Of a stretch of 36,726 bases of DNA, positions 2,237-32,553 are shown one piece after another; within the stretch, counting starts at the first letter, position 1; every line of letters begins with the position of its first letter. The position numbers were made by a program, and so were the translations under genes. This stretch comes from Globomyces pollinis-pini. Taxonomy: Eukaryota; Chytridiomycota; Chytridiomycetes; Rhizophydiales; Globomycetaceae. Location: the NCBI GenBank assembly GCA_025399215.1, contig MU621266.1, forward strand, positions 1 through 36,726. Reading direction: 5' to 3'. Below the pieces are notes generated by a model, which worked only from the letters and a program-made list of their open reading frames with translations, had not been told where the DNA came from and did not search any database.

Positions 2237-2710
2237 TTAGTACACAATGGTGGGAGTAGGGTTTGAAGAAGGGTGACGGTATTCTTTCGGTTTGGACGAT
2301 CGTTTCGCAATGATGATAGCTATGCCAACAAGCACCAAAATAATAACCAAAATAATAGAGATAATGGCCAGAACGGACAAACCGTTAGCATTCCCTTCAT
2401 TAGTATCTTTTGGTTTAGTAGCAGTGACATCTTTCGGACTACCCGTTATGGTTGGTAAGGTCAAAGCAGTTTCGGTTGGTAAGATGATAGTGGGGAGTGT
2501 AAAGGTTGGTAACACCGCAGATACGATAGAGTCCAATGGTGGGATAGAGACAGCTGGAATAGCAGGAACTCCAGGGATGTTGTTTGGAATAGGGATGTTG
2601 TTAGGAACAGGGATGCTATTTGGGATATTGAAAGGAAGTTGAGGGTTTGGAATGGACTTGACCATCATCAACATGAACAGGGTTAACATTGGTACGATTG
2701 AAAACATCAA
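2237..2710 (-). CDS. Proline-rich single-pass membrane protein
   Basis: This is a 157-residue protein of unknown family. It has a hydrophobic N-terminal signal segment (about residues 1-20, rich in Met and Leu). A low-complexity outer region follows, built of I-P and N-N-I-P units (for example PVPNNIPIPNNIP) and then Thr/Pro-rich sequence. A short polar spacer leads to one strong membrane helix (about residues 110-134, LSVLAIISIILVIILVLVGI) and a basic tail beginning KRSSKPKEYR. The expected topology is outside N-terminus, inside C-terminus, as in fungal cell-wall or sensor-like single-pass proteins. No introns are needed. A TATAAAAG box lies about 90 bases upstream on the minus strand. The short I-P/L-P repeat style resembles the neighbour at 3031-3351, so the two may share an origin; this is weak evidence. 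Confidence 0.75.
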   Translation of the reverse strand: MMFSIVPMLTLFMLMMVKSIPNPQLPFNIPNSIPVPNNIPIPNNIPGVPAIPAVSIPPLDSIVSAVLPTFTLPTIILPTETALTLPTITGSPKDVTATKPKDTNEGNANGLSVLAIISIILVIILVLVGIAIIIAKRSSKPKEYRHPSSNPTPTIVY

Positions 2711-3030: not shown

Positions 3031-3351
3031 TCATAAGAGGGAAAATAGCAATACTCCAACAAGACTTGGTAAAGTGGAGTAAGACCAAGCTGAACTGGTT
3101 GGCGAGGAAGCTGCTTGCGAAGGCTTGGTACCTGTTGATGTGGTAGTCAATTGGCCAACAATAGTTTTTGCGAAATCGGTAACCACTGGAAGAAAGGTTG
3201 TCAAACTACCAGGAATAGTAATTCCAGTAGGCAATTCTGTTGGAAGACCGACAGGAACAGTAAGGCCACTTGGAAGACTGATTTGACACATTACACTCCC
3301 AACCAAAACACTGGACACAGCACTAAACTTCATGATTATCTTTCTGCACAT
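3031..3351 (-). CDS. Small GPI-anchored-type secreted protein
   Basis: A 106-residue reading frame. The seventh residue is also Met (3333-3331). Starting there gives 100 residues with a cleaner signal peptide (MKFSAVSSVLVGSVMCQ), and a minus-strand TATAAATA box at 3369-3362 sits about 30 bases before that codon, so I favour the internal start. The mature part has repeated Pro/Leu/Val/Thr units (LPSGLTVPVGLPTELPTG). A Ser/Thr/Pro-rich stretch follows (TTTSTGTKPSQAASSPTSSA), then a terminal hydrophobic tail (LPSLVGVLLFSLL). A signal peptide, an S/T-rich stalk and a short hydrophobic C-terminus together are the layout of a GPI-anchored surface protein. No family is recognised. Confidence 0.7.
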   Translation of the reverse strand: MCRKIIMKFSAVSSVLVGSVMCQISLPSGLTVPVGLPTELPTGITIPGSLTTFLPVVTDFAKTIVGQLTTTSTGTKPSQAASSPTSSAWSYSTLPSLVGVLLFSLL

Positions 3352-3830: not shown

Positions 3831-6800
3831 ATGAATGGATATCAGTGCCTTGGAATCTCACTCCTAATCTTCTACGTATTTGCCAATTCGGAATTAGAAG
3901 ACCACCGACCAACCAAAGAAATGATTGCTTTGGAATCTCTTGTAAATGAACAATCAAATCAAAATCAAGCAAATTCACAATCAGATTGTCAAACCATTGT
4001 ACAGTTGTGGAATGAATTAGGTTAGAATTTAACAAAAAATTCTAATCTTTAGGGGGAACCCCCATAGATCACTATAGTTCCTTGAATTGTTGCGATATCA
4101 GTGGAATTGTTTGCCCTTATGGATACCTAGAAAGCGGTTACTCAATGTAACTATATTTAAATATTTCTAATGCAAGTCAATGGAGTCAACAACAGTTAAG
4201 CGGAACCATCACCGACATGATTGGGAATTTAAAATCAGTCATATCGATGTAATTAAATATAACTTACAACTTTGAAAAGAGATTTAAGTAATAATTATAT
4301 TACAGGTGTAATACCGGAGTCAATTGGCAAATTGACAAGTATAACATCAATGTACTTTATTTAAATCTGACCATAGCGCATTTCATCACAATCAACTGCA
4401 TGGTCCTATTCCAGTAACGTTTAATGACTTGCACAACTTATCTTCTTTGTATTGTCGATACATATTGTTAATGTATATAATAGGTTATTGCAAAGTAATC
4501 AATTATCAGGCGAAATCACTACCATCATGTTTTCAAACCTCAAGCATTTAGATTATTGTGATTTCAAGGATAATGTCAATTTATGTATGTCGGAAATGAC
4601 AGATGCTTTTCAATGTGGTGACTTACCCGCATGTCCAACTATTGATTCTGATTGTCAGATATTGCACAATTCTTGGAATGAACTTGGTGGAGTTGCTGAT
4701 GACGCTCCTCCAGTATCAGGTTGTTGTGGAATCCCTGGAAGTGGTATTTACTGTACTTTTGATTACCCTTACCAAGGATTTTATCTTGATTGGAGGTCTA
4801 GAAATTTATCTGGAACTATACCATCATATCTTGGAGACTTGTCAAACCTTACCTACCTGTATGACATATCTTTTCCTAATTGTTTCGTAATTAGGTATTT
4901 GTTTGATAACCAGTTAACTGGGACCATACCAGACTCTTTGGGGAAACTTTACACGTTAAATGGATTATTTTTGTCAGATAATCAGTTGAATGGGTCTATT
5001 CCAAGTACCTTGGATGACTTGCCAGAACTACATTGGCTGTAAATGAACTATTGCACTCATTATCATTATAGATACTTAAATAACAATTTCTTAACTGGAT
5101 CTATTCCTCCTCAAATTGGCAAAAATCAAATCAATTTTTTGTAAATTCCACAATCAATAATTGTAGGAAATTAAATGGAAATTCTCTCGAAGGTTCATTT
5201 CCAAATCCGCAAATAAGTCCCGGATTTGATTCACTCTATGTCTGTAATCTAAATGACAACCCATTGCTGTGCTTGGACTCTGATAACATTTTACCAACTG
5301 TGTGTGGTGATTTACCAAGTTGTGACAAGAATTTGACAACTGATAGCCAACCATTCCCTTCCGACCCTTCTTTGAACCAAACTATAACAGAAGTAGATAC
5401 CATTTCAGTACCTACACCTATTAATGATTCAATTGAACCTACAATACCACCTGATGCACAATGCCAACTACTTTCAGCACTGTGGAGTGAGCTTGGAGGA
5501 AGTTATAACCCAAACTTAACACCAGATAATTGCTGTGAAACTGGAAATAATGGGATATACTGTAATGGAAAGCATACTTCCGAAGGGTATTATATTGAAT
5601 GGAGAAACAGTAATTTTACCAATGCCATCCCGGAAACTATTGGCCAGCTATCAAACATTAGTTATATGTAACAATCGACTCATCATTAATTACAGATATT
5701 TTTCGGATAACTCGTTGACAGGAACTATACCAGAATCTATTGGCAATTTAACTACGCTAGAAGGCATATTTTTGTCCAATAATCAGCTGAATGGAACACT
5801 GCCACGATCATTACAATATTTGAACAGTTTGAAATGGCTGTAACTATTCCATTGTAGTTTAACTATTTGTACAGGTTTTTGGATTCTAATCAATTCTCTG
5901 GGAATATTCCAGCATATTTTAAAGACCTAAAAGTACAATTTTTGTAATTATCATAAATAATTTTTATACTAGGTATTTAAACAATAATCAATTCCATGGG
6001 CCATTTCCAAACCCGAACACTCAACCAGGATATGAAGACTTATATACATGTCGTATTGCAGACAATCCATTACTCTGTCTTGATAATGAGAATACTTTAC
6101 CATTAGCCTGTGATACTTTGCCGCCATGTTCAACCCGAACCGTAACGGAACCAATAACCTCGTTGATTACTATTCCGCCAACTGCCACATTCACATCTCG
6201 TTCTCCTCAAGCTACCATAAAGTCAGCTTATTGTAGAATTTTGTTTAATGGTTGGTACACTCTTGGTGGTCAATCTGCTTTAAAACTAAAAAATGGCTCA
6301 TGTTGTGGAGAAGTATCTAATGGGATATACTGTAACAATGAAAATCAAATCGAGGATGGATTTTATGTGGATTGGAGAAATTTGTCTCTAAATGGAACTA
6401 TTCCAGATGAATTTGGTAGTCTTTTACCTTTGGCATACCTGTAACAAACTGATGTTCTAACTTGAGCATAGTTATTTATTTGGAAACAATTTGACTGGAA
6501 GAATACCAGAGTCGTTTGGAAACTTGATTAACCTGAATGGTCTATTTTTATCCAATAATCATTTGGTGGGCACTATACCAGAGTCAATAGGCAATCTTCC
6601 TAGTTTGAATTGGCTGTAAATCTGTACCTATGAGCTAATCTTTTAGTTATTTGGATGGAAATGAGCTTACAGGGTCAATTCCATCTCAACTAGGATTTAA
6701 TAATTTGAACTTTTTGTAATACAGTATTGATTAATTTTTTAGAAAGTTAAATGATAATCGGCTCAGTGGTTCATTTCCAAATTTGATCCAAAACTCTGGT

Positions 6801-9325
6801 TTTGTGTCGCTTTATGTTTGTAACATCCAGAACAACGATGAACTGTGTATTGATTCAAAAAATATTCTACCTTCTATATGTGGATCCTTACCAAATTGCA
6901 GTGTAAACACAAATACAATTGAAACTGCACCCATTATCAGCACGACTGCTGGTTCTAATGATACCACTTTGCAAATCGATTCCACAAAAACAGTCTCTAA
7001 TAGTCAAAATACCCCATTTGCGAATCTCAAAGATTGTAGAATTGCGAAGCGGATTTGGGAATTGATGGGAGGTGGTCCTGATGTTCAAATACCCAAAGAC
7101 AATTGTTGTGGTAAAAACGGTATCCTCTGTGAATCTGGATCTATCACAACTATGTAAATTACTATCAACTGATCGATTAATATTAGTGAATGGCGGTCAC
7201 TTAAATTAAAATCCAAGATACCTAAACTTATTGGGAATTTAACAAATTTGGTTACGTTGTAATTGATCATTAACACTGAATATCTAGAGATTTAAGAAAT
7301 AATTACTTGAATGGAACCATCCCGTCAACTATGAGAAGGTTAACAAAACTACAAACGATGTAAATTATTTTATATGTGATGTACTAACTTTGAAAGCCAA
7401 CTGGATCAAAATCAATTAACAGGTTCTATCAAATTTCTTGAGGGGATGTATCAATTAGAAAAGGCTTTTTTAAGTTATAATCAGTTCAATGGAAATATAC
7501 CACTTCTAAATTCTACGCAATTAACCACATTGTAACTTTAAAACTGTGATTGATACCTTATAGAATACTGGATTCAAACAATTTGAATGGACCTATCCCC
7601 AATTTATCACAACTGACAAATTTACAATACTTGTATTTAATTCTAATTTTTATTTAATATGATAGATCTATATCTCAAAATCAATTGACAGGGATGATAC
7701 CACATTCTATCGGACTATTGAATCAATTGATGCTACTGTAAATTGAAAAGCTAATCCATTAGTGATGTATCATCCAATGAACTATTAGGTGAAGTACCAG
7801 ATTTCAAAAATTTGACACAATTAAGATGGTTGTAAGTAAAATAGAAATCATAATCGTTAGATATTTAAAAGATAATCTTTTTTATGGAAATTTACCAGTT
7901 TCTAAAGCACTCAATACAGAGCTCAACGCATGCCATATTAAATCTGGAAATCAGTTTTGCTTTTCTAATGTGAAAGATATACCAGAATCATGTGGAAAAG
8001 CACAAGAGTTTCAAAATTGTGATTGTATAGTTGTGAAAAATGCCTGGGAATCAATGAATGGGAATACAAATCGTTCTCCAGACAGAAATCAATGCTGTCA
8101 GAAACCTTCTGGAATACAATGTCGAGAAGAAAAAATCATCTCAATGTAATTGAAGATTATGTTTAAACCAACGTATAGCAATTGGGCTCATTCAGATTTG
8201 TTTGGCGATATATACACAGAGTTTAATCAACTTCAAAGTCTTGAAACATTGTAATTTATTCTATAATTTACATTAGAATTCTGAATTCGAATGAATTAGA
8301 ACATCCGAACAACTTGAATCTGAAAGATATTAATGTCAAACATCTGTATCATTTTTGAACTCATGTAAAAAAATAGGGACTTAGGGAACAATCGGTTAAA
8401 TGGACTCATTCATCCTTGGATTTGTGAATTAAAGGATTTAGAAGAATTGTAACTCTCTAATTGTTTAACAATATTAGGAATTTAAGTTACAACTCTTTTT
8501 ATGGAGAACTGTGTGACTTTTCAAATTTAACAAACCTGAAATTCTTATCATTTGCAGGAAACAAATTAGAAGGACATATTCCATCACTGAATAACTTGAA
8601 ACAATTGAAATCAATGTAATTTTTATGGATATTGACTGTTACAGTGATTTCAGTTTCAATGAATTCATTGGAGAATTTCCGATTGTCGAAAATTTGACTC
8701 AACTCGAGAATTTGTAAGAATATCCGATGTTAAATAAGATAGAGCTCTGAACCAAAATCTATTATCCGGAACTATACCAGATCTTAGAACTTTAACGCAA
8801 CTCTCTTCCATGTATGAACAATTCATCTTAACCTATAGAGATTTAAGTTCAAATAGGTTCAATGGCAGTTTTCCAGCCCTTGACAATCTTCAACAACTTC
8901 AATTATTGTAACTCTTGTTTTTTAGATTCTTTAGGGATTTTTCATTTAATCAACTCACAGGGCCAATAGAAAACAGTTTCTCGAATCTTCCGAATGTACG
9001 ATATTTGTAAGAGTCTAATATTTACTGATGCCATAGAAATTTGGAAGAGAATTTCCTAAACGGTTTTCTCCCAGCATTGAATAATTTATCGAATTTGGAA
9101 TATTTGTACATTATATGTGATTAGTTAATCAATAGGAATCTAAGATACAATCAATTCATTGGCCCATTTCCAAACCCACCAAATAATACTGGGTTTCGAA
9201 ACCTCAACAAGTGTTTAATAGAAAGTGGAAATCAACTTTGTGTTGATATTGGCCATACTATACCAATTTCATGTCCATTATTACCACAATGCAGTATTGC
9301 GCGTAACAGCACATTGAATGAATAA
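3831..9325 (+). CDS. Secreted protein with six tandem LRR modules, 32 exons
   Basis: I join 32 exons across 31 introns of 25-37 nt to give 4557 nt, exactly 1518 residues plus a stop. The first ATG (3831) starts a signal peptide (MNGYQCLGISLLIFYVFANS). The rest is six copies of one module. Each opens with an N-cap of the pattern C-x6-W-x2-L/M-G-G ... CC ... G-I-x-C. Plant-type 23/24-residue LRRs follow (L-x2-N-x-L-x-G-x-I-P), then a cysteine cap (LC ... C..LP.C), often with a Ser/Thr/Pro linker. There is no membrane helix or GPI tail at the end, so the product is probably soluble outside the cell. Introns start (GT) at 4021, 4147, 4249, 4352, 4449, 4859, 5039, 5141, 5668, 5840, 5944, 6441, 6616, 6716, 7154, 7259, 7360, 7532, 7633, 7738, 7832, 8146, 8251, 8346, 8449, 8616, 8714, 8812, 8908, 9007 and 9106. 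Such proteins usually bind ligands or cell walls; the actual role is unknown. AATAAA overlaps the stop codon. Confidence 0.85.
3987..9304 (+). repeat. Six repeated LRR modules inside the LRR gene
   Basis: Module N-caps lie at about 3987-4114, 4650-4754, 5462-5563, 6231-6333, 7034-7130 and 8024-8122. Modules 2, 3 and 4 have the same exon layout after the cap: a 144-nt exon (two LRRs), then a 69-nt exon (one LRR), then the C-cap exon. Module 1 has three 72-nt exons. Modules 5 and 6 carry six and nine LRR exons, and their LRRs are less regular, often lacking the G-x-I-P signature. The shared layout of modules 2-4 points to whole-module duplication; modules 5 and 6 look like local single-exon expansion. 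Confidence 0.85.
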
Positions 9326-21661: not shown

Positions 21662-22948
21662 TTAGTTAGGACGTGGTGAGTTCATGTATTCGTTCGGGCT
21701 TGGTGATAATGGAGTTCGCGTTTGGAAAGGAAAATTGGACGCATTTGAAGATATATTTCTACGGTCACTTTGTGGTGTTGAACTATTGATTTGTGTTGGG
21801 GACGCGATTGCTCTCATATTTGGAGTTAAACCAGTGGTACTGATCCTTAGTGGTACTATTCTTCGCGTATCATTAGGTGACAGGGATGTGTTGGGGATGC
21901 TTAAATGTGCTGATGGTGAAGTATTCGTAACACTGTTTCTGACGCCAGCATCAACAATATTTGAACCATCGATGGAATTCATTGACTTGCGTATATCCAA
22001 TGTAGATAAACGTTGAGCAGATGCCGGTCGAAGTTGCCCACTACCTCTAATTGTAATACCAGGCTTTGATGTACGCTTTCCATCATTTACTCCTTTAGTC
22101 AATTGTCTAGGATACTTCATCTTTGCACAGTAATCATATATCAAAACATACACAATCGGATAAATTGTCAATTTTAGATCAGCAATGATGTTCAATTCAC
22201 CAATTGTCGAAGTCACATCTATCGCAACAACAATAGTCCCAATCAAGTACACTATTAACGCAATTATATCAATGACCATCATTAAGATGATTCTTACATT
22301 TAGCTTTTTATGGTACTTGTCGAAACGTACTTTGCTACGATCACTAAAGTTTTCTCTTCGTTTTGGTGCATCTAATTTAATGCTTTGTAACAAATAAAAT
22401 ACGATACAAACATGCAGACAGGTTTGACATATGTACCAGGAAAGTTTTCCACCAATTATCCACTACCAGCAATTAGAATATCATCCAATATTTACCGCTT
22501 TGACTGTTTTGTTATCGACCAGAATTATCCTGTTGATAAAGTTGGGCGAAAGAGTAATGACAAAGATAACTACAACCACATACTGTAAATGCAATAACTT
22601 CCTTTTACTCCAATATGTATATCCAATATGAAATAATTTTACTATTTCAACGAATTGTAACGTAGCAGCTAATAGCATTATACTAGTAGAGTAATTGTCG
22701 ATGACGATTAACACTATTTGAGGAATTTCTTCTGAATTCAACGATAATAGTAAATGATTGATTATCCAGATAACTGCCAGTATAAAGTACGCTAAAAGTT
22801 GACGATATAGGATGATATTCTCGACCAGACCACTAAAAAGGTGATAGATATAGCAAGAATCTACTACCAACAACACCAACTGTAATGCGATAGTAACGAA
22901 GCTCAGCATAGATGTTTCAGTCATTTTAGTTGCAGATGATTCAGTCAT
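21662..22948 (-). CDS. 7TM protein, member A of a three-gene family
   Basis: Two exons (22948-22496 and 22462-21662) joined by a 33-nt phase-0 intron give 417 residues. I take the ATG at 22948 (MTESSATKMTE) because it aligns with the start of the divergent neighbour. An upstream frame reaching 23029 begins at TTG and is not used. About seven hydrophobic segments are seen: four before the intron and three after. Exon 2 opens with the family-typical W-I-I-G. After it come a loop with K-L-D-A-P-K-R-R and, after the last helix, a cytosolic tail of about 170 residues rich in Ser, Thr, Pro, Asn and Arg. No GPCR class signature (DRY, NPxxY) is visible, so receptor function is only a guess. The gene is head-to-head with member B (221 bases apart). 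Confidence 0.8.
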
Positions 22949-23169: not shown

Positions 23170-24626
23170 ATGAAATATTCGGATGCTACGAAGCAAGTGA
23201 CGCCAATTGATTATATTACAATTGGATTTCTGATGATACTGTTCGTCTACAACTTCTTCTACTTCTGTCTACTGATGATGGGAGAAATTAAGGATAGGTC
23301 TTTTGCCCAAAAACTCATACGGATGCTGTTTTTATTACAGATAGTTCTATTATCGAAGTTTTTTGCTTATTTTGGTGAAGCGTTGGTGTATGGAAACCTT
23401 CCCGCTGATGCTGCAATCGTTGTCCACTCAATAATGACATACTCGGACTCACTTTTACTCCTTGTCAGTGTACTATATCATGTAGAAATTATCCAGCTAC
23501 TTAAGATTGTGTTGATCTTTTGGACTCCGTCCAAAATATTTGTATTCAAAGTCGCTATTGTGATCGTATTCCTTGCACTCAAAATCCCTTCCTTAATAGT
23601 GGATGTATTTGTATTGAATCATCAGCCACTATATCTAGCTCTTTCACAGGTAAGTTTCTATTCTCGATTTTATTCCAGTGGGACTATATTGGTTTAACAA
23701 GTTGGTTTTGCTATCATGTGTGCGTTGAAATTCATTTGGCATTTAATCTATCTTTTAGTGTCAAAATAGATGCACAGCAACGTCGCGTAAACTTTAGCAG
23801 AAGAGAAAAGAAGAAGTTTGATATCAATTACAAACAATTTCAATCAATCATTTTCTGGATTAGTTCCCTAGACTCTATTTGCCTTTTAATTCATATTACA
23901 GGAGTATTAATTTCTTTAGATGATTCGCTCGGATTGGAAAGTTTAGGTATCTGTCTGCAAAGAGTGGCAAGTTTAAGAATAACACTACATCCATATATTT
24001 TTCAAAGACTTCACCAGGCAAATGCGGATATGAAATTTTCCAGGGAGTTGAAGAAGGAAGAAAGGCCTAACTCTGTTTCATTACCTGCAAATAACCGACC
24101 AAATGGTAGATTACGTGGAAACTCAGTCCGAATATCAATATCGATTCCAAATAACCAAGTAACACACAATGATCTATACTCTCCAACCACACCCGTAATT
24201 ACCAGTAATGGTTTACTGCCTTCTTCTGAGTCACCTGTCGACGAAAATGCCCAACCCATAACGAGACGTTCTTCTAACGGACCTACAAACACTTTAGAGC
24301 AGACCCACGGTCGAAGAACATCAAATGCGGCTATGATGTCAAATCCACCTTCAGAACAGACCCATGGTCGAAGAGCATCAAATGCGGCTATGATGGCAAA
24401 TCCTACTTTAGAGCAGACTCATGGTCGAAGAGCATCAAATGCGGCCATGGTAAATCACATGCAACGGCGGATGTCCAACGCACCCATGGTGAATAATAGT
24501 GAAGTATTACAGCGGAGGATGTCAAACACACCCGTTTCGAACGCAGCGGTTAAAGCAACAGCTGTTATTCAAAATTCTAAACCCGTCTTTGATGAAGAAG
24601 CTAGTACTCAGTCACAAGGGCCCTAA
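23170..24626 (+). CDS. 7TM protein, member B, with R-R-x-S repeat tail
   Basis: Exons 23170-23649 and 23679-24626, with a 29-nt phase-0 intron, give 475 residues. Hydrophobic segments are near residues 13-38, 46-72, 82-116 and 120-150 in exon 1. Three more lie in exon 2, which begins W-D-Y-I-G-L-T-S-W. The shared motif V-K-I-D-A-Q-Q-R-R-V-N-F lies between helices 5 and 6. The tail (about 190 residues) carries R-R-S-S, then three copies of a 19-residue unit with H-G-R-R-A/T-S-N-A-A-M, then two Q-R-R-M-S-N motifs. R-R-x-S is the classic substrate pattern of PKA-type kinases, so the tail is a good candidate for multisite phosphorylation (inference). Members A and C share the helices and intron position. 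No named family is recognised. Confidence 0.82.
24294..24452 (+). repeat. 57-nt in-frame minisatellite in the 7TM-B tail
   Basis: Copies lie at 24294-24350, 24351-24407 and 24408-24452 (the last partial). Each encodes (L/S)-E-Q-T-H-G-R-R-(T/A)-S-N-A-A-M. The unit is a multiple of three, so changes in copy number keep the frame and only change the number of R-R-x-S sites. Confidence 0.85.
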
Positions 24627-31676: not shown

Positions 31677-32553
31677 ATGTACAATGTGGTTGATTTAAGA
31701 ATCATAGAGAAGATAACTATAGGTTTGATTGTTTTGACGATGCTTATGCAATTATATCATTGTTTGTTTCTGTGTCGCGGAATCATTCCAAATCGAATAG
31801 TTACACGAAATTTACTTTGGTTAACCATATTAACATTCATTTGGAATCTCTCCAAGCTACTTCCGTATGCATCACCAACTAACGTTTGGTTGATATTTTT
31901 CAATAATGTGACTGCAGTGTTGACTACTATCGCTACAACTTTGCAAAATTTGGAAATATTTAAATTACTTACAAGCTTAATGCGATTTTGGACAACCAGA
32001 CGAGTCAATATTCTTCAGGCGTGTATTGGTAGTCTTTTCCTGTGTTTAACTGCTCCTTACATTTTTTTGCCATTCACAGATGGATCTTTTATGAACTCGA
32101 ATATAATACAAAAAGTATTAAATAATTCAGCTTAATACTTAGTGGTCCATATACGGAGCCTCGATTGTTGGAATATTGAAGGTTTTGATTGAAATTCTGG
32201 TTGCATTCTATCTGTCCCATATTGTAAGAATTGATTCTTTGAAAGAACGAGAGAACTATTTGGAATTGGATAAAATCAAATTTGCGCGATTTTACAGGAA
32301 TCTACAGCGAAATCTGTTTGTGATTTCAACATTAGAAGTTCTGGGATTACTGGAATATCTGGTGGTAATGGTCCTACAAGATCAAGGATTTCTTAACGAA
32401 ACTGATGCAGAGAACTTGGGACGGATAGGATCTCTACAGATGGCAGTACATCCCATCATTTATTCAATGTTATTCCTGAGTATCTTGAAGATGAAATTTT
32501 CAGTTGCATTGAGAATTACGGAAACTCCGTATTCAAAGACTACTAAACTATGA
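31677..32553 (+). CDS. 7TM protein, member C (short tail)
   Basis: Exons 31677-32114 and 32143-32553, joined by a 28-nt phase-0 intron, give 282 residues. Layout matches members A and B: four hydrophobic segments before the intron (starting I-T-I-G-L-I-V-L-T-M, then L-W-L-T-I-L-T-F-I-W, N-N-V-T-A-V-L-T-T-I, and I-L-Q-A-C-I-G-S-L-F), then W-S-I-Y-G-A-S-I-V-G and two more helices. A loop with R-I-D-S-L-K-E-R-E corresponds to the K-I-D-A-Q-Q-R-R loop of member B. The protein ends shortly after the last helix (KMKFSVALRITETPYSKTTKL), so the long phosphorylatable tail is missing. If unspliced, the frame stops at 32135 inside the intron. Confidence 0.8.

What the first reader, a model, noticed from the sequence alone, without database searches (positions are those of the whole stretch)
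3831..9325. One exon per leucine-rich repeat, six modules in one gene
After the signal peptide exon, 30 of 31 introns are phase 2 and fall at the same place in the repeat, after two bases of the codon for the last residue of an LRR. LRR exons are 69 or 72 nt (19 single) or about twice that (5: 144, 144, 144, 135, 138), i.e. 23/24 residues each. This gives a gene that can add or lose LRRs by exon duplication without breaking frame. Modules 2-4 have the same exon layout, so whole modules also duplicate. The total of 1518 codons closes exactly. Such a locus could diversify a secreted recognition or adhesion protein quickly.
Basis: seen in the sequence. Interest (0 to 1): 0.75.

Follow-up and report, generated by a model that had tools for sequence, protein, structure and literature searches.

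The report
Chytrid gene built from one-repeat exons
A gene of a chytrid fungus is cut into small exons that each encode one leucine-rich repeat, cut at the same point as reported for rice receptor genes; other genes of this fungus share the design, including receptor kinases that a 2010 survey found lacking in fungi.

Summary
3831-9325 is one gene: 31 introns of 25-37 nt, 30 in phase 2, 1518 codons. A predictor blind to phase and repeats, but trained on these splice sites, finds 29 of 31 introns. The public Globomyces pollinis-pini protein BC833DRAFT_120350 fits 30 of them.

The design is not peculiar to this locus. In 17 other gene models, 68 of 69 introns near a strict "IP-type" repeat are phase 2 at the same residue; six "LP-type" repeat models have 1-3 introns each. 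Members include LRR-transmembrane-kinase genes, a kind reported lacking in fungi in 2010 (PMC2939053). Site and phase equal those printed for rice LRR-kinases (PMC3050792).

On contig C147 a 99-bp head-to-tail array (72-nt exon plus 27-28-nt intron, introns alike) shows exon and intron duplicating together. The window gene shows no such trace, so "diversifies quickly" is unsupported here. It most likely encodes a secreted, six-domain LRR binding protein on an old exon array. One-exon-per-LRR design is known in plants, animals, brown algae and, as 90-bp exons, Tetrahymena; the fungal setting is what is added.

The parts
3831..9325 (+). Whole gene: 32 exons, 31 introns of 25-37 nt, 1518 aa; BC833DRAFT_120350 of Globomyces pollinis-pini
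3831..4020 (+). Exon 1: signal-peptide-like start and beginning of N-cap 1; intron 1 (4021-4052) is the only phase-1 intron
   Evidence: signal peptide judged by eye
4053..4640 (+). Rest of module 1: exon 2 (N-cap), LRR exons 4177-4248, 4280-4351, 4377-4448 (72 nt each), then LRR and C-cap at the start of exon 6
   Evidence: module ends approximate
4650..5325 (+). Module 2: N-cap and first LRR in exon 6 (4484-4858), double LRR exon 4895-5038 (144), single 5072-5140 (69), LRR and C-cap in exon 9
   Evidence: ends approximate
5459..6129 (+). Module 3: same layout; double LRR exon 5696-5839 (144), single 5875-5943 (69)
   Evidence: ends approximate
6232..6900 (+). Module 4: same layout; double LRR exon 6472-6615 (144), single 6647-6715 (69)
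   Evidence: ends approximate
7032..8010 (+). Module 5: N-cap in exon 15; LRR exons 7187-7258, 7288-7359, 7397-7531 (135, double), 7564-7632, 7666-7737, 7763-7831; LRR and C-cap in exon 22
   Evidence: module ends approximate
8019..9325 (+). Module 6: N-cap in exon 22; LRR exons 8179-8250, 8277-8345, 8377-8448, 8478-8615 (138, double), 8645-8713, 8743-8811, 8839-8907, 8935-9006, 9037-9105; last LRR and C-cap in exon 32 (9136-9325)
   Evidence: module ends approximate
9106..9135 (+). Intron 31; the public protein ends inside it, but the exon behind it encodes an LRR and a C-cap like those of the other modules
4859..4894 (+). Intron 6 (36 nt), one of two introns that could be retained in frame without a stop (the other is 8812-8838); the predicted protein of Globomyces sp. 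JEL0801 reads through it

Best explanation
The locus is a single gene of the chytrid fungus Globomyces pollinis-pini for a secreted protein of six tandem LRR domains, each with a Cys-rich N-cap, plant-type (IP) LRRs and a Cys C-cap. It is built from a standard genomic unit: one 69- or 72-nt exon (one LRR) plus one intron of about 30 nt that splits the codon of the first Leu/Ile of xxLxLxx in phase 2. The unit duplicates as exon plus intron by tandem (unequal) exchange, keeps the frame at any copy number, and sometimes loses an intron (double exons). Whole N-cap/LRR/C-cap modules have duplicated too. Other IP-type LRR genes of this fungus are built so, including LRR-transmembrane-kinase genes. 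In the window gene the array is old and no recent change is visible. Shown by computation: gene structure, common site and phase, the 99-bp exon-intron array on C147, repeated modules. Inferred: unequal exchange as the agent, intron loss as the source of double exons, secretion, and binding of an outside ligand or surface.
For: Gene model and public protein P0001. Same site and phase elsewhere: 68 of 69 introns near a strict LRR anchor in the 17 models that have such anchors, 21 of 21 in the window gene; 68 of 89 anchors carry an intron there, 21 of 25 in the window gene. Control in the same genome: six LP-type LRR models (L034, L035, L040 three models, L045) have 1-3 introns each, ten in all, seven in phase 0, one in phase 1, two in phase 2. 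C147 (L051): self-identity 0.543 at lag 99 against a mean of 0.283; eleven 27-nt introns share 0.518 core identity against 0.356 (sd 0.108) for 18 27-nt introns of other genes; 13 exons of 72 nt, starts 99 or 100 bp apart save one step of 199; period 99 by Tandem Repeats Finder. The exon base before the intron is T in 30 of 30, whereas neighbour introns follow G or A in 28 of 41, which speaks against repeated insertion at a favoured site. Modules 2-4 share one layout (144 + 69) and 28 of 47 residues in each pair of double exons, but only 6, 14 and 7 of 22 in the single ones. N-caps of modules 1-5 form one clade (support 0.89), module 6 pairs with a module of the C426 gene (0.85). Best matches among solved structures are plant LRR receptor ectodomains.
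Against: In the window gene itself neither introns nor neighbouring exons show residual similarity, so duplication of exon plus intron is shown only for one relative, and even there neighbouring exons are only slightly more alike than others (0.651 vs 0.626) and the best exon pair is 0.76 identical. No transcript data. Models of relatives come from a simple predictor and were not curated; some are fused to neighbours. In the 24 models 111 further introns lie away from strict anchors (67 phase 2, 23 phase 1, 21 phase 0). N-cap trees rest on about 40 residues. No ligand, partner or localisation data.
Confidence: 0.8

Rival explanations
1. The array is under fast present-day turnover: LRR exons are gained and lost between strains, or skipped by alternative splicing, to diversify recognition.
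For: All 29 inner exons are divisible by 3 and phase 2-2. The predicted protein of Globomyces sp. JEL0801 lacks exactly exon 8 and exons 16-17 while near-identical around them (47 of 47, 599 of 601, 325 of 329). C147 shows that such arrays have expanded.
Against: No similarity of neighbouring exons or introns beyond background and no tandem repeat in the window gene. The JEL0801 prediction also reads through an intron, drops exons 2-5 and the start of exon 6, loses nearly all after exon 26 and is fused to the next gene, so its missing exons look like prediction errors.
Confidence: 0.12
2. The introns were inserted separately into an intronless LRR gene at a site that recurs in every repeat.
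For: Every repeat offers the same NTN (Leu/Ile) codon, so a sequence-directed insertion would also give a regular pattern; introns of the window gene are not alike beyond background.
Against: The site has T before the intron in 30 of 30, whereas neighbour introns of the window follow G or A in 28 of 41; LP-type LRR genes offer the same kind of Leu codon but have few introns; introns of the C147 array are related by sequence.
Confidence: 0.1
3. The gene model is an artefact: several short genes, or LRR pseudo-exons fitted to expectation.
For: Seven introns were placed using the LRR register, and the second predictor was trained on the result; no RNA evidence here.
Against: The first predictor, trained on other genes, already gave 24 of the 31 introns; one blind to LRRs and phase gives 29; the public protein is one gene product consistent with 30; linkers between modules are open; the minus strand of the locus gives one model over 100 aa, of 151 aa with five introns in mixed phase.
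Confidence: 0.03

Closest known systems
Plant LRR-kinase genes with one exon per LRR (rice group 5, ERECTA, SERK types; PMC3050792, abstract and passages read)
   Same: 72-nt exons (also 144, 69, 66 ...), phase 2, introns split the first Leu of xxLxLxx and separate repeats exactly; IP-type LRRs
   Different: Window gene has no TM-like segment or kinase, six LRR domains in a row and introns of about 30 nt; its N-cap gives no Pfam match
Brown-algal ROCO LRR exon arrays (PMC11378527, passages read)
   Same: 72-bp phase-2 exons, one LRR each, thought to duplicate and shuffle
   Different: ROC-COR proteins; alternative splicing and positive selection reported there, neither shown here; exact split residue not compared
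Tetrahymena 90-bp LRR exon arrays (PMC6564038, passages read)
   Same: Tandem LRR exons of fixed length with phase-2 introns; exon shuffling
   Different: 90-bp exons, intron-length peaks near 120 and 260 bp in T. [quoted passage not shown] here 69/72 nt, about 30-nt introns, fused double exons
Animal LRR genes with exonic modularity (NLRs, Slits: PMC6642158, abstract and passages; gonadotropin receptors as cited in PMC11378527)
   Same: Repeat-sized exons that permit in-frame skipping; phase 2 in gonadotropin receptors
   Different: Other LRR classes and protein architectures; split residue not compared
Plant LRR receptor ectodomains of known structure (GSO1, FLS2, ERL1, BRI1)
   Same: Best sequence matches among solved structures
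   Different: One long solenoid on a membrane receptor (recalled), against six short secreted solenoids

Membership tests
[quoted passage not shown]
   19 single and 5 double exons
[quoted passage not shown]
   21 of 21 introns near a strict LRR anchor (25 anchors; 9 further phase-2 introns and the phase-1 intron are not near one); split residue Leu or Ile in all 30
[quoted passage not shown]
   No RNA data; the public protein is consistent with 30 of 31 introns
Extracellular IP-type (plant-type) LRR proteins | LRR domains and IP-type consensus | tested here: met
   LRR_8 E 2.8e-53, LRR_1 E 7.3e-44; 25 strict IP-type anchors; plant receptor ectodomains as best solved matches
Extracellular IP-type (plant-type) LRR proteins | LRRNT_2 N-cap (PF08263) | tested here: not met
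   Not among the 6 families found at E 0.001; a C..W...GG..CC..GI.C N-cap is seen in alignment instead
LRR receptor kinases | Transmembrane segment and kinase domain | tested here: not met
   No TM-like segment in the window protein, no kinase family; relatives in the genome have both
Rapidly shuffled LRR exon arrays (brown-algal or Tetrahymena type) | Recent exon duplication or scrambling | tested here: not met
   Window gene. The C147 relative keeps duplicated exon-intron units, but its best exon pair is 0.76 identical, so not very recent either
Rapidly shuffled LRR exon arrays (brown-algal or Tetrahymena type) | Copy-number change between strains | tested here: inconclusive
   Only a predicted protein of JEL0801 is at hand; its missing exons may be prediction errors

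The most novel reading that the evidence does not exclude
The shared split point (first Leu of xxLxLxx, phase 2, 72-nt unit) in this chytrid and in rice is one inherited trait: a single LRR exon unit older than the plant-fungus split, or moved between these lineages, from which both a fungal and the plant set of LRR receptor kinases were built separately. A chance match of site and phase within a 24-codon repeat is about 1 in 72 if all sites are equal (my estimate, made after seeing the match). Chytrids would then hold a receptor-kinase repertoire reported as lacking in fungi, grown by exon-intron duplication that can still be read on contig C147.
Probability: 0.3. Interest if true: 0.75.

Novelty: new variant of a known kind. 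Interest (0 to 1): 0.5.

Why it matters
One-exon-per-LRR arrays are part of receptor evolution in plants, animals and some algae. In the listings of searches (titles and starts of abstracts of an open-licence library) I saw no report of such genes, or of LRR receptor kinases, in chytrids, and a survey of 49 fungi called LRR receptors almost entirely absent (PMC2939053, passages). A chytrid genome with such genes, among them LRR-TM-kinases, gives a further lineage in which to ask whether these exon units share an origin or arose in parallel. The C147 array, with exon and intron still recognisably duplicated together, is a tractable place to study the process.

Tried and rejected
Rejected: several genes rather than one (open linkers, one public protein). 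Rejected for this gene: recent exon shuffling. Considered and set aside: that GTAA donors were selected so that retained introns stop translation at once. 23 of 30 phase-2 introns begin GTAA, but 25 of 41 neighbour introns do too (p 0.20), so this follows from donor consensus plus phase 2. Considered: unusual splicing because introns are only 25-37 nt; neighbour introns have a median of 30 nt as well, so it is a trait of the genome. A search of the genome with Pfam LRR_1 gave only 2 places and not the window gene, because exons are scored one by one; it was replaced by a module query. Transfer of the receptor kinases from plants was looked at only through a kinase search: after six Globomyces proteins the next three hits are plant receptor-like kinases at 26-30% identity (E 3e-9 to 5e-8), which decides nothing. 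A profile search with full-length receptors was swamped by LRR proteins. The first gene-finder run gave no model because of a wrong end coordinate; later settings over-predicted introns and were replaced. The first N-cap tree missed module 5 and held one false N-cap; it was redone. One candidate paper was not held. Structure prediction was not tried.
Full report
Identity. The window is contig C177 of an 18.5-Mb genome of 459 contigs. Its protein is BC833DRAFT_120350 of Globomyces pollinis-pini (P0001; best hit,726-bp contig). A predicted protein of Globomyces sp. JEL0801 (P0002, 82% over 81% of the query) is next; of 4341 hits the other 118 listed are LRR proteins, mostly unnamed, the named ones from bacteria and plants.

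Gene structure. A gene-finder with codon scores from other genes of the window and crude splice rules gave 30 introns, 27 in phase 2, at one of four settings; 24 of them stand in the final model. With the LRR register used at seven introns, the model closes at 1518 codons with 31 introns, 30 of them phase 2. A second predictor, blind to phase and LRRs but with splice matrices trained on these introns and a penalty tuned on this gene and two ORFs, recovers 29 of 31, with one wrong acceptor and one miss. The public protein is consistent with 30 introns; it lacks 11 residues with a conserved N-cap Cys, and ends inside the last intron. All 29 inner exons are divisible by 3.

Anatomy. Exon 1 starts with a signal-peptide-like stretch (by eye; it does not reach the hydropathy threshold). 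Six modules follow: Cys-rich N-cap, IP-type LRRs, Cys C-cap; modules 2-4 have the layout 144 + 69. No TM-like segment, 31 N-glycosylation motifs, 51 Cys. Pfam finds LRR families only; the best solved matches are plant LRR receptor ectodomains (query P0001).

The design is shared in the genome. A composite module query gave 106 exon-level matches at E up to 10, the window's own included. Twenty stretches around part of them were fetched and modelled; 24 models with three or more loose LRR motifs were kept, not curated; three stretches (L033, L036, L047) gave none. Seven models have no strict IP-type anchor. In the other 17, 68 of 69 introns within 12 residues of an anchor are phase 2 at the residue that is split in the window gene; 68 of 89 anchors carry an intron. 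A further 111 introns in the 24 models lie away from anchors: 67 phase 2, 23 phase 1, 21 phase 0. One model (L052) runs 143, nine times 72, 81, 1195, 280, 350 nt. Of the seven models without strict anchors, six are LP-type LRR genes with 1-3 introns each; the seventh (L035, 5684) has five introns and four loose motifs and was left out of that control. So repeats alone do not bring introns.

Receptor kinases. The long 3' exons of L041 (two genes), L052 and L042 (two genes) encode a TM-like segment, basic residues (by eye) and a kinase-like region (L052 has a second, weak hydrophobic stretch inside the kinase). Pfam confirms LRR plus Pkinase in the two tested (E 3.4e-28 and 4.4e-32). A kinase query gives 43 exon-level matches at E up to 1e-5 on 22 contigs; most of these loci were not modelled. 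Of five G. pollinis-pini public proteins found with the kinase, two (P0123, P0124) carry LRR families as well, with a TM-like segment; P0124 has two N-caps. Soanes and Talbot 2010 (PMC2939053, passages) found five LRR receptors in four species and fifteen secreted LRR proteins in 10 species among 49 fungi, and no LRR-kinase with a TM region (four LRR-kinases of Batrachochytrium lacked one). Listings of searches for later reports showed none in the library held; that is no proof of absence from print.

How the arrays grow. On C147 (L051) thirteen 72-nt exons start 99 or 100 bp apart, save one step of 199 where a unit was missed by the pattern; self-identity at lag 99 is 0.543 against 0.283 on average; introns of 27 nt share 0.518 core identity (n 11) against 0.356 (n 18) for 27-nt introns elsewhere; Tandem Repeats Finder gives period 99, with 68-76% matches. 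So exon and intron duplicated together, though not very recently: the best exon pair is 0.76 identical, and neighbours are only slightly more alike than other pairs (0.651 vs 0.626). In the window gene the same tests are negative: neighbours in the list of single exons 0.562 (18 pairs) vs others 0.554 (153 pairs), equivalent introns of modules 2-4 0.56-0.69 against 0.60 for random pairs, no tandem repeat. N-caps of modules 1-5 group together (0.89) and module 6 pairs with a module of the C426 gene (0.85), so part of the module set predates the split of the two genes (short sequences, moderate support).

Why not insertion. In the 30 LRR introns the preceding exon base is always T; among 41 predicted neighbour introns it is T in 9 and G or A in 28. 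A favoured insertion site would be expected to look like the other sites. Together with the C147 introns this favours inheritance of one unit.

Comparison. Rice LRR-kinase introns split the first Leu of xxLxLxx in phase 2, with 72-nt exons and doubles (PMC3050792, abstract and passages): the same site, phase and sizes. Brown-algal ROCO genes have 72-bp phase-2 LRR exons (PMC11378527, passages); Tetrahymena has 90-bp phase-2 LRR exons (PMC6564038, passages); human LRR genes show exonic modularity (PMC6642158, abstract and passages). The kind is therefore known; the fungal setting, the tiny introns, the six-domain secreted protein and the link to chytrid LRR-TM-kinases are what is added. Whether the plant-chytrid match in site is common descent, transfer or parallel evolution is open.

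Limits. 

Noticed in passing
L041 (786), L042 (two), L043, L044, L048 (+), L050, L052: In these eight LRR-TM models the start Met lies 4-8 residues before the first N-cap Cys and no signal peptide is seen; six were checked and all have an in-frame stop shortly upstream. The second L041 model is an exception, with a longer N-terminus. Either a hidden upstream exon or signal-peptide-free N-out insertion.
   Followed up: partly
L051 2806-4167 (contig C147): Head-to-tail array of about 14 units of 99 bp, each a 72-nt LRR exon plus a 27-28-nt intron, with introns related by sequence.
   Followed up: yes
L050 and L043 (contigs C95 and C14): LRR ectodomain plus TM-like segment plus an SH3 domain (SH3_2 in one, SH3_1 and SH3_9 in the other over the Pfam cut-off): a receptor-like layout with an adaptor domain in place of a kinase.
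   Followed up: partly
L037 (contig C426): Second multi-module gene with the same kind of N-cap (four found) and phase-2 LRR exons; nearest to the window gene in the N-cap tree. The model seems to run on into a neighbouring gene.
   Followed up: partly
window genes 9512-30584, + strand: Introns are tiny throughout: 41 predicted introns, median 30 nt, 25 of them starting GTAA.
   Followed up: partly
22481-22948 (-), 23170-23697 (+), 31677-32135 (+): Three hydrophobic-looking proteins of 152-175 aa, related to one another (24-28% identity, E 1.5e-5 to 2e-9), without a Pfam family.
   Followed up: partly
24030-24626 (+): ORF with short internal repeats of the type EQTHGRRASNAAMM, no Pfam family.
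   Followed up: no
2237-2707 (-) and 3031-3333 (-): Two small Pro-rich proteins with signal-like starts (by eye) next to the LRR gene, no Pfam family and no mutual BLAST match.
   Followed up: no
P0002 (HDV02_002775, Globomyces sp. JEL0801): Predicted protein omits exon 8 and exons 16-17 exactly, in frame, and is fused to the neighbouring hydrolase; most likely prediction error, but it would be a recent exon loss if real.
   Followed up: partly
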